A DNA stretch of 64,000 nt from Yersinia alsatica (GTDB lineage: Bacteria; Pseudomonadota; Gammaproteobacteria; Enterobacterales; Enterobacteriaceae), in NCBI RefSeq assembly GCF_902170305.1, contig NZ_CABHWW010000010.1, positions 1-64,000 of the forward strand. Direction: 5' to 3'. The notes below the pieces were generated by a model that had not been told where the DNA came from, did no database searches, and worked only from the letters and a program-made list of their open reading frames with translations. The translations under genes and the position numbers were made by a program. This document shows, in pieces, positions 58,925 to 62,443 of the stretch; within the stretch, counting starts at the first letter, position 1; each line of letters begins with the position of its first letter.

Positions 58925-61900
58925 ATGGACATAAATACTCAGGGATTTGCATCATACTGGCGCAACTCCTTAGCAGATGCCGAGTCTGGCAAAGGGGCAT
59001 TTGAGCGCAGAGATACGGATGCATTCACCCAGTGGATGGATATCACCACGGGACGATTGAATGAGGAAATTGTTCGTGCGTTCTTTGAGGGGGAAGGCGA
59101 TACGGTGAAAACCGTTGAAGTGCTGCTACGCCCACAAGCATGGATCCGCCTGGTACAGCATGGCAAAGAACGGACGGCCGGAGCGCCGGGCATCGTCACC
59201 CCGTTAGTGACTTCTGCTCTCCTGAACCGTGAAGGATTTTTATTCCCCACTGGGGCAACCACCATTCCTCGTGATCTACTCGAACCGCTCCCCAAAGGCA
59301 CCTTCTCAATTGGCGAGATGGCGCAATATGATAAATATAAAACCACGCATAACTCGACTACCTTTGATGAGGATGATGAACAGCAAGGCCTTGAGGAAAA
59401 TGACGAGCAGCGAGCTGAACGTTATGCAAAGCACCAGTTGCAATGGCAAAAGTATCTAACTGAGTCAAATAATCTCCTGAAGAACGTGGCGGAAACATGG
59501 CTCTCTACCCACGAGCAATACGAACCGGCTGGGTATGGTTATGTTATCAAAGCGAACCAACCCGGAGGGGCCAGTATCCATATCCTGCCCATGTACGATC
59601 ATCTGCTGACGTGCAAAAAAGAGGTTCCGTTACTAACGCGCTTTGCTTCGACTAAAATGCCATCTGTAGAACCTCTCCTTGCCGCCAATGCCATGTTCTG
59701 CGAGCGTCTGGGGCATTCCGGGGATGAGTTCCCGCTGGCAATGGCGCAGCGAGATGCCCTAAACCATTATCTCACCCAGCAATCGGGCGATATCCTCGCG
59801 GTTAATGGCCCGCCGGGAACCGGAAAAACTACTCTGGTTCTCTCAATCATTGCCACTGAATGGGCAAGAGCGGCCCTCAATAAAATCGAGCCACCAGTGG
59901 TAATAGCCGCATCAACCAACAATCAGGCTGTGACCAACATCATTGAAGCGTTTGGTAAAGATTTTTCCACAGGCACTGGAGCAATGGCCGGGCGCTGGTT
60001 ACCTGGGCTGAAAAGTTATGGTGCTTACTTCCCGTCTTCGGGTCGTAAGGCCGACGCCGCGAAAAAATACCAGACTGATGATTTTTTTAACCGTGTTGAA
60101 TCTCTGGAATACGTTGAAGAGGCACAGATCCTCTATCTGGAAAAGGCAAGGGCGGCGTTTCCATCGTCGGATTGCAGCTCTCCCGAACGCATCGCGGATC
60201 TTCTACACAAATGTTTAGTCGAGCACTCCGAGCAGCTTAAGCAAATTAAGCCGGCATGGGATAGTCTGAACCGTATTCGTGAGGAACGGACCGCCATCAG
60301 CGAAGATCTCGACCAGTACGTTCAGGACAAAAATACGTTACTACTCGGCAGCACGAATGAAATCGCATTATTGAACCAAGGCAAAAAACAGTGGCAGCAA
60401 TATCGTGCGGACGAGTCGATGGTGTATGCGTTCTTCTCATGGATCCCCGCAGTCCGTACTAAGCGCTACTATCAGATTAACCTCTTCCTGGACGATATGT
60501 TTGGCGCAAGGATGGCTGCGTTTCGGGGTACCGCACCTGAAGGTATCGACGCGTATATCGACGACCTTGTTGCCCAGGTGAAAACAGAACAGGATGGATA
60601 TCAGCAGCAAATCGATCTTGCTCAAGACGTTTCCCGACGCGAAAGCAACGCTACCCGATATTGGCATGAACTAACCCAGTCACTAGGGCATACAAGCGAA
60701 GAGGAGCTGAGCCTGGCTGGAGCTGATGAGCTTGCCGATATGAAGATCCGCTTCCCGGCATTCCAGTTGGCGACCCACTACTGGGAAGGTCGCTGGCTGA
60801 TGGATATGGCGGCGATTGATAATCTTCAAAAAGAAAAAGGCCGCAAAGGAGCTAAAACTGTTAAGGCCCGCTGGCAGCGCAGGATGAAGCTCACACCTTG
60901 TGTTGTGATGACCTGCTACATGCTGCCTCATCATATGAAAACTAATGAATTTGTCGGAAAGGGCAAGCCATTTGATAAAAGCTATTTTTATAATCTTGCC
61001 GATCTGTTGATCGTCGATGAAGCCGGGCAGGTGCTCCCCGAAGTGGCTGCAGCTTCTTTTGCACTAGCGAAGAAAGCGCTAGTGATTGGCGATACTGAGC
61101 AGATTGCGCCCATCTGGAACAGTTTACCCAGCATTGATATCGGTAATATGGTGGAGGAGAACATTCTCCCCGGCGGTACTCAGGAAGAGCTTACGGATGC
61201 CTATGCACTGGTGTGTGATTCAGGGAAAAGTGCAGCATCGGGCAGCGTAATGAAGATTGCCCAGTTTAACTCTCGCTATCACTACGATCCGGATTTAGCC
61301 CGTGGGATGTATCTGTACGAGCACCGTCGCTGCTTCGATAACATTATCGGCTACTGCAATACGCTGTGCTATCACGGCAAGTTACAACCAAAGCGGGGAA
61401 CCGAAAATGAGACGCTTTTTCCTGCGATGGGCTATCTGCATATTGATGGCAAAGGCATGCAGGCAAACAGTGGGAGCCGTTATAACGCTTTCGAGGCAGA
61501 GACAATAGCGGCTTGGCTCACAGCTCACAAAGAAGAAATCGAGCGTCATTACAACAAAGCGCTGCATAAAGTGGTTGGAGTCGTGACGCCATTTTCAGCG
61601 CAGGTCAACGCTATCAAAGCCGTATTACGCAAGCTCGATATTAACTGTAGCGGTAGTGAGGATTCGCTAACGGTTGGTACAGTGCATTCGTTGCAGGGGG
61701 CAGAAAGAGCAATTGTGCTCTTCTCACCGGTCTATTCGAAACATGAAGATGGTGGGTTTATCGACAGCGATAGTAGCATGCTGAATGTTGCCGTATCCCG
61801 CGCTAAAGATAGCTTCCTAGTCTTTGGTGATATGGACTTATTCGAGATCCAGCCCGGATCTTCCCCGCGAGGATTATTGGCAAAATATCTGTTTGCTTCC

Positions 61901-62443
61901 ACCAGCAATGCATTGCAGTTTGAGTTTCAGGAGCGCAAAGATTTAAGCGCGGCACAAACGCAGATCTCAACCTTGCACGGTGTGGAACAGCATGATGCAT
62001 TTCTTAACCAGACTTTTGGCACTATCGGAAAGAGCATTACTATCGTTTCCCCTTGGCTGACTTGGCAAAAGCTGGAACAAACCGGCTTTTTGACGTCGAT
62101 GATCCAGGCGCGCTCACGCGGCATTGATATCACTGTGGTGACAGATAGAAATTACAATACCGAACACGTTGATTATGAAAAACGCAAAGAGAAACGACTG
62201 CGCCTTAACGATGCTGTAGAAAAGCTTAACGAGATAGGTATTACTACAAAACTGGTCAATCGCGTTCACAGTAAAATTGTGATTGGGGACGAGGGTTTAC
62301 TCTGCGTAGGGTCGTTTAACTGGTTTAGTGCCGCTCGAGAAGATAGGTATCAACGATACGATACGTCGATGGTGTACCATGGCGAAAGCTTAAAAGGTGA
62401 AATCAAAACGATTTATACCAGCCTGGAACAGCGTCAGTTATAG
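58925..62443 (+). CDS. SF1 helicase with C-terminal PLD nuclease, Mokosh type II (MkoC)-like
   Basis: A 1172-residue protein. Residues 1-280 are a unique N-terminal region. A superfamily 1, COG1112/UPF1-like helicase follows: Walker A GPPGTGKT (295-302), an insertion of about 390 residues with a likely coiled coil, Walker B VDEAGQ (from 697), motif III GDTEQIAP, YEHRRC, TVHSLQGAE and AVSRAK. At the C-terminus HSKIVIGD (H1115, K1117, D1122) and GSFNW form one HxKx4D phospholipase-D nuclease motif. A COG1112 helicase with PLD in one chain is the described make-up of Mokosh type II anti-phage defence. All catalytic motifs look intact. Start: ATG after GGGGCAGGG. Confidence 0.82.
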   Translation: MDINTQGFASYWRNSLADAESGKGAFERRDTDAFTQWMDITTGRLNEEIVRAFFEGEGDTVKTVEVLLRPQAWIRLVQHGKERTAGAPGIVTPLVTSALLNREGFLFPTGATTIPRDLLEPLPKGTFSIGEMAQYDKYKTTHNSTTFDEDDEQQGLEENDEQRAERYAKHQLQWQKYLTESNNLLKNVAETWLSTHEQYEPAGYGYVIKANQPGGASIHILPMYDHLLTCKKEVPLLTRFASTKMPSVEPLLAANAMFCERLGHSGDEFPLAMAQRDALNHYLTQQSGDILAVNGPPGTGKTTLVLSIIATEWARAALNKIEPPVVIAASTNNQAVTNIIEAFGKDFSTGTGAMAGRWLPGLKSYGAYFPSSGRKADAAKKYQTDDFFNRVESLEYVEEAQILYLEKARAAFPSSDCSSPERIADLLHKCLVEHSEQLKQIKPAWDSLNRIREERTAISEDLDQYVQDKNTLLLGSTNEIALLNQGKKQWQQYRADESMVYAFFSWIPAVRTKRYYQINLFLDDMFGARMAAFRGTAPEGIDAYIDDLVAQVKTEQDGYQQQIDLAQDVSRRESNATRYWHELTQSLGHTSEEELSLAGADELADMKIRFPAFQLATHYWEGRWLMDMAAIDNLQKEKGRKGAKTVKARWQRRMKLTPCVVMTCYMLPHHMKTNEFVGKGKPFDKSYFYNLADLLIVDEAGQVLPEVAAASFALAKKALVIGDTEQIAPIWNSLPSIDIGNMVEENILPGGTQEELTDAYALVCDSGKSAASGSVMKIAQFNSRYHYDPDLARGMYLYEHRRCFDNIIGYCNTLCYHGKLQPKRGTENETLFPAMGYLHIDGKGMQANSGSRYNAFEAETIAAWLTAHKEEIERHYNKALHKVVGVVTPFSAQVNAIKAVLRKLDINCSGSEDSLTVGTVHSLQGAERAIVLFSPVYSKHEDGGFIDSDSSMLNVAVSRAKDSFLVFGDMDLFEIQPGSSPRGLLAKYLFASTSNALQFEFQERKDLSAAQTQISTLHGVEQHDAFLNQTFGTIGKSITIVSPWLTWQKLEQTGFLTSMIQARSRGIDITVVTDRNYNTEHVDYEKRKEKRLRLNDAVEKLNEIGITTKLVNRVHSKIVIGDEGLLCVGSFNWFSAAREDRYQRYDTSMVYHGESLKGEIKTIYTSLEQRQL

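What the first reader, a model, noticed from the sequence alone, without database searches (positions are those of the whole stretch)
58925..62443. Mokosh type II-like helicase-PLD fusion in a Yersinia-type island
The sequence shows an intact SF1 helicase (Walker A 295-302, DEAG at 698-701, TVHSLQGAE, AVSRAK) fused to one HxKx4D PLD motif (1115-1122). Known: Mokosh type II is described as one protein with a COG1112 helicase and a PLD nuclease. The insertion of about 390 residues between Walker A and B and the roughly 280-residue N-terminal region are not explained by either domain and could sense phage RNA or DNA.
Basis: partly seen in the sequence, partly recalled or inferred. Interest (0 to 1): 0.85.

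Follow-up and report, generated by a model that had tools for sequence, protein, structure and literature searches.

The report
Intact Mokosh type II defence gene
This looks like an intact copy of a known bacterial anti-virus protein that joins an RNA/DNA-unwinding motor to a nucleic-acid cutter; it is a good but ordinary example of its family.

Summary
Window 58925-62443 (+) encodes an intact 1172-aa protein with every named motif at the stated residues. It matches PADLOC's MkoC, the single protein of Mokosh type II, over its full length (1525.9 bits), as do 14 full-length relatives of 70-90% identity. In E. coli, 829 of 5,426 complete genomes hold a DNA match covering at least 80% of the gene, intactness not checked. 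The "unexplained" parts are less odd than claimed: a Walker A-to-B gap of 301-459 residues occurs in all 14 proteins measured, six of them without the PLD motif; Pfam AAA_11 has about 140 positions where this protein has 347 residues; and a helical insert after Walker A is described for CnuH, a UPF1-like helicase of CoCoNuT systems. Trigger, target and phage protection are untested. An adjacent McrBC-like pair is convergent and was not found in 23 other mkoC loci. Verdict: new member of a known kind, low interest.

The parts
58925..62443 (+). mkoC-like gene (Mokosh type II), 1172 aa, intact
   Evidence: PADLOC MkoC 1525.9 bits, residues 1-1170 to profile 1-1135 of 1136; ORF; the only other match in the genome is a short C-terminal piece
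58925..59728 (+). N-terminal region, residues 1-268; perhaps the OB-fold/stalk region of UPF1-like helicases (inferred)
   Evidence: No Pfam hit at E 5, no significant PDB hit (best E 0.52); 30-34% identity to five distant relatives against 63-71% in residues 269-351; precedent CnuH
59807..59830 (+). Walker A GPPGTGKT, residues 295-302
   Evidence: invariant in 15 of 15 and 8 of 8 sequences
59978..60889 (+). Segment between the two halves of RecA1, residues 352-655, holding the enlarged insert; perhaps helical (inferred)
   Evidence: AAA_11 positions 74-214 correspond to residues 345-692; no significant PDB or Pfam hit (best E 0.058 and 0.077)
61016..61027 (+). Walker B DEAG, residues 698-701
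   Evidence: invariant in 15 of 15 and 8 of 8
61679..61705 (+). Helicase motif TVHSLQGAE, residues 919-927
   Evidence: sequence; inside the AAA_12 match 796-970, 79.8 bits
61790..61807 (+). Helicase motif AVSRAK, residues 956-961
   Evidence: invariant in 15 of 15 and 8 of 8
61910..62440 (+). C-terminal PLD-family domain, residues 996-1172
   Evidence: PLDc_2 40.6 bits on this stretch alone; profile matches endonuclease 1byr E 2.1e-4, phospholipase 7e0m E 0.0029, NucT E 0.01
62267..62290 (+). HxKx4D motif, residues 1115-1122, followed by GSFNW at 1129-1133
   Evidence: H1115, K1117, D1122 and G1129-W1133 invariant in 15 of 15 and 8 of 8
62678..64000 (-). Neighbour, not counted as part of the system: McrC-like DUF2357 plus PD-(D/E)xK protein (534 aa, runs to contig position 64282); beyond the window a 762-aa McrB-like GTPase at contig 64284-66572
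   Evidence: Pfam DUF2357 and PDDEXK_7; Walker A and NMDE (NxD) in the 762-aa protein; coordinates

Best explanation
It is MkoC, the one-gene Mokosh type II anti-phage protein. Most likely mechanism: the UPF1-like SF1 helicase loads on phage-derived single-stranded RNA (or ssDNA); the N-terminal and inserted regions help choose or grip the substrate and pass on the ATPase state; and the C-terminal PLD domain, which has one HxKx4D and so probably needs a partner copy to build an active site, cuts the bound nucleic acid. Shown here: intact gene, domain order, conserved catalytic residues, purifying selection, full-length family match. Inferred from the families: ATPase and translocation, a paired nuclease. 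Guessed: RNA as the target, a role of the insert in sensing, and whether the outcome is phage clearance or cell arrest.
For: MkoC 1525.9 bits full length; 15 of 15 members of alignment A1 match MkoC. AAA_11, AAA_12 and PLDc_2 above cut-off. By sequence the helicase part matches SEN1, SMUBP-2, UPF1 and DNA2 chains in the PDB (best E 6.9e-6); the PLD part matches endonuclease 1byr and NucT. Catalytic residues invariant down to 40% identity. Median dN/dS 0.068 in the PLD part (17 saturated pairs and 1 with dS 0 left out of 136) and 0.052 in RecA2 (51 saturated left out). Apart from mkoC no gene cluster is shared by more than 6 of 15 neighbourhoods, which fits a one-gene system. Single relatives lie beside annotated defence genes: drt3a/drt3b, a phosphorothioated-DNA restriction endonuclease.
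Against: No activity data for this gene. NCBIfam has no family that reaches its cut-off for it. RNA against DNA is open; UPF1-like helicases act on both RNA and ssDNA (PMC11090510). The PLD profile also matches a phospholipase chain, 7e0m, E 0.0029. Helicase relatives without PLD exist (L030, L055), so the helicase part may act on its own. No structure could be predicted.
Confidence: 0.85

Rival explanations
1. A housekeeping or repair UPF1-like helicase that happens to carry a PLD domain, not a defence protein.
For: Other helicases match MkoC over the helicase part only: 10 of the 18 matching genomes in a 398-genome sample; six of those ten proteins were scanned and score 205-430 bits against MkoC.
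Against: Patchy distribution: 4 of 25 genomes of the genus, one of the four copies with a stop inside. Changing neighbourhoods. Occurrence on plasmids: 41 of 637 matching records cover at least 80% of the query. Full-length MkoC score of 1525.9 bits.
Confidence: 0.07
2. The helicase-PLD protein works together with the adjacent McrBC-like pair as a composite, CoCoNuT-like system.
For: The neighbouring 762-aa protein has the NxD signature followed by E, the variant of the McrB branch that contains the CoCoNuTs; types II and III of these are nearly always found with a UPF1-like helicase, and type III-C uses PLD nucleases.
Against: The genes are convergent, not an operon. tblastn finds no McrB/C homologue in 23 other mkoC loci, several with short or one-sided flanks. 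In three of the eight listed plasmid records with related GTPases no MkoC-like protein lies in the fetched stretch; one of them has a DEAD/DEAH helicase gene about 5 kb away, another a cytosine methyltransferase and a Vsr-like endonuclease gene beside the pair. At E 1e-30 the GTPase was found in 1 of 119 genomes searched, the window's own.
Confidence: 0.03
3. A decaying copy without function.
For: Broken or partial copies occur: a C-terminal piece in the same genome, a copy with a stop in another genome of the genus, the K-12 yjhR pseudogene.
Against: This ORF is full length with the catalytic residues in place; median dN/dS 0.088 among 17 genes.
Confidence: 0.04

Closest known systems
Mokosh type II, MkoC (PADLOC PDLC03924)
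   Same: One gene, helicase then PLD, full-length profile match
   Different: Nothing that sets it apart was found
Mokosh type I, MkoA plus MkoB
   Same: Helicase part matches MkoA (117.7 bits), C-terminal part matches MkoB (43.9 bits, residues 1001-1140)
   Different: Type I has separate genes and a kinase domain (PMC11672841); here one fused gene
E. coli YjhR
   Same: Five E. coli genomes have a full-length match of about 74% DNA identity annotated 'helicase YjhR'; one was looked at, intact as annotated
   Different: In K-12 MG1655 (NC_000913.3) yjhR is annotated as a pseudogene; the two listed records named K-12 match only query 2296-3513
CnuH, UPF1-like helicase of CoCoNuT types II/III (PMC11090510)
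   Same: UPF1-like SF1 helicase with a large insert after Walker A, paired with or fused to a nuclease
   Different: CnuH goes with NxD McrBC genes and mostly a separate CnuE effector; this protein carries its own PLD domain

Membership tests
Mokosh type II (MkoC) | Single gene with N-terminal helicase and C-terminal PLD nuclease (definition in PMC11672841) | tested here: met
   AAA_11 from 274 and AAA_12 to 970, PLDc_2 at 1036-1138
Mokosh type II (MkoC) | Full-length match to the MkoC profile | tested here: met
   1525.9 bits, residues 1-1170 to profile 1-1135 of 1136
Mokosh type II (MkoC) | Helicase of COG1112 | not testable with these tools
   No COG library at hand; Pfam AAA_11/AAA_12 and SEN1/UPF1-like PDB matches agree with it
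Mokosh type II (MkoC) | Intact helicase and HKD catalytic residues | tested here: met
   Walker A, DEAG and H/K/D invariant in 15 of 15 and 8 of 8 sequences
Mokosh type II (MkoC) | Protects cells from phage | not testable with these tools
Mokosh type I (MkoA+MkoB) | Helicase and PLD in separate genes, with a kinase domain | tested here: not met
   One fused gene; no kinase domain among its Pfam matches
CoCoNuT type II/III | UPF1-like helicase encoded together with NxD McrB and DUF2357 McrC homologues in one operon | tested here: not met
   An NxD McrBC-like pair is adjacent but convergent; none found in 23 other mkoC loci

The most novel reading that the evidence does not exclude
The MkoC helicase is a general UPF1-like chassis, akin to CnuH of CoCoNuTs, onto which different effectors are fitted: PLD in Mokosh type II, none in L030 and L055, and a Toprim domain in the more distant L033. 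Its long insert or its N-terminal region would be the part that reports substrate binding to whichever effector is attached.
Probability: 0.3. Interest if true: 0.45.

Novelty: new member of a known kind. Interest (0 to 1): 0.2.

Why it matters
It adds an intact, well-conserved example of Mokosh type II; a 2026 review puts Mokosh among systems of unknown mechanism (PMC12926258, passage read). Matches covering at least 80% of the gene occur in 829 of 5,426 complete E. coli genomes, so a mechanism found for this family would apply widely. The comparison also brought up helicase-only and Toprim-bearing relatives that could help to separate sensing from cutting.

Tried and rejected
Structure prediction was the obvious test of the N-terminal region and insert and could not be run, so no fold search was made. 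Sequence searches of those two parts against the PDB and Pfam gave nothing significant. Viral-contig scans with the P. syringae, Agrobacterium and gut-phage-record homologues found no relative. The MkoB search in 147 relatives rang nowhere, controls included, so it shows nothing. The promoter and terminator scan gave no more sites than the shuffles (7 against a mean of 7.6; 1 against 3.9). No repeat of the tRNA end marks a right border of the island on this contig, which ends at 83539. A composite system with the neighbouring McrBC-like pair was considered and set aside. No passage that I read gave an experiment on MkoC; paper searches made: (one search returned 676 papers, the 20 listed being on other subjects). 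Of these papers I saw listings, and passages or one section part of PMC10952713, PMC12278908, PMC12926258, PMC11291487, PMC11305592, PMC10013915, PMC12935923, PMC11672841 and PMC11090510; PMC12458937 was searched for four terms and held none. The discovery paper (Millman et al. 2022) is not held and is known to me from recall only.

Full report
What is there. The ORF 58925-62443 (+) encodes 1172 aa without interruption. Walker A, DEAG, AVSRAK and the H/K/D of HxKx4D are invariant in alignment A1, in which 14 relatives are 70-90% identical to it, and in A2, in which seven are 40-73% identical. In TVHSLQGAE one position varies in A1 and two in A2.

What family it is. Against PADLOC the best match is MkoC, 1525.9 bits over the whole protein; MkoA (117.7 bits) and MkoB (43.9 bits) match only its helicase and PLD parts. 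All 15 members of A1 match MkoC. Pfam sees AAA_11, AAA_12 and PLDc_2 above their cut-offs; no NCBIfam family reaches its cut-off. The nearest solved chains by sequence are SEN1, SMUBP-2 and other UPF1/DNA2-type helicases for the helicase (best E 6.9e-6), and for the PLD part endonuclease 1byr (E 2.1e-4), a phospholipase (7e0m, 0.0029), NucT (0.01) and mitochondrial cardiolipin hydrolase (0.023). That nucleases with one HKD motif act as dimers is recalled. Mokosh type II is described as one gene with helicase then PLD in PMC11672841 (passages) and PMC10013915 (passages). A 2026 review lists Mokosh under unknown mechanism (PMC12926258, passage), while PMC11291487 states that it degrades viral transcripts (passage). 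No passage that I read reports an experiment on MkoC.

How common. Of 25 genomes of the genus 4 match at E 1e-50 or better, this one included; one of the four has a stop inside. In a 398-genome sample of the phylum 18 match: 5 over nearly the whole profile (this one included), 2 over the helicase without PLD (one of them with a stop), 1 in two pieces with stops, and 10 over the helicase region only. In E. coli 829 of 5,426 complete genomes hold a DNA match covering at least 80% of the gene and 2,285 hold some match; intactness was not checked. MG1655 keeps a yjhR pseudogene. Among plasmids 41 of 637 matching records cover at least 80% of the protein, among phage records 1 of 7, an unverified record.

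The supposedly unexplained parts. Walker A to Walker B is 395 residues. Pfam AAA_11 positions 5-74 align to residues 274-345, and 214-254 to 692-731 (the second as a fragment hit below the cut-off), so 140 model positions stand where this protein has 347 residues, an excess of about 207. The gap is 388-401 in nine of the 14 proteins measured, 301 in a distant homologue from a gut phage record (L048), 337 in L033 and 414-459 in three other helicases; six of the 14 have no HxKx4D. So a long gap goes with the helicase, not with the PLD fusion. The insert and the N-terminal region evolve faster than the rest but under constraint: median dN/dS 0.123 (13 of 136 pairs saturated) and 0.119 (4 saturated), against 0.052 in RecA2 (51 saturated) and 0.068 in PLD (17 saturated, 1 with dS 0). 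For CnuH, the UPF1-like helicase of CoCoNuT systems, a helical insert after Walker A and an OB-fold with stalk are described (PMC11090510, section 9 part 1 read). That is my best model for this protein, but it is inferred, since structure prediction was off.

Surroundings. Upstream lie an AraC-type regulator and genes with DUF2264, LacY-type and glycosyl hydrolase 88 domains. Downstream and convergent lies a DUF2357/PD-(D/E)xK gene and, beyond the window, a 762-aa protein with Walker A and an NxD signature that matches PADLOC PDC-M26A (141.7 bits). Then follow a mandelate racemase/enolase-like gene, UxaC, an MFS carrier, a mannitol dehydrogenase-type gene and a GntR regulator, a block that is 91% identical in another genome of the genus. 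A tRNA-Arg with an adjacent integrase lies at 45393-46849; another genome of the genus matches 44118-46806 at 82%, so an integrase at this tRNA is not unique. The AraC gene was found in 1 of 25 genomes of the genus. The right border was not found. In 15 mkoC neighbourhoods the most shared other cluster is in 6 (its identity was not profile-tested). McrB/C homologues were found in none of 23 other mkoC loci, some with short flanks.

Effector variation. L030 (996 aa) and L055 (1006 aa) have the same helicase but end before the PLD; L030 matches MkoC profile positions 3-963 at 969.8 bits. L033 has a Toprim domain after the helicase; its helicase parts are 28-30% identical to this protein. This is the one lead with some novelty, but a variety of effectors with CnuH-type helicases is already described.

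Verdict. A correct reading of an ordinary, intact Mokosh type II gene: new member of a known kind, interest 0.2.

Noticed in passing
L020 10735-10870 (own genome, contig C23): A 136-bp piece, 90% identical to the 3' end of mkoC, lies between a type I methyltransferase gene and a ThsB-like TIR gene: probably the relic of a second mkoC.
   Followed up: partly
62678-64000 and on the contig to 66572: Convergent McrBC-like pair: DUF2357 plus PD-(D/E)xK protein and a 762-aa protein with NxD signature, no Pfam match at E 0.001 and a partial PADLOC match to candidate family PDC-M26A, 141.7 bits.
   Followed up: partly
L030 1489-4479 and 4552-5709 (- strand): PLD-less MkoC-like helicase 72 bases downstream of a gene that looks like a HipA kinase (by eye, not profile-tested); PLD-less L055 also has a HipA-like ORF about 3.5 kb downstream.
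   Followed up: no
L033 124-3849: Distant relative of the MkoC helicase carrying a Toprim domain after the helicase.
   Followed up: partly
49775-51149: LuxI-type autoinducer synthase and LuxR-type regulator, convergent and overlapping by 20 bases, in a low-GC stretch after the tRNA-Arg integrase.
   Followed up: no
E. coli K-12 MG1655, L051 10016-11032: yjhR, annotated as a pseudogene near nanS, appears to be a relic of the mkoC family.
   Followed up: partly
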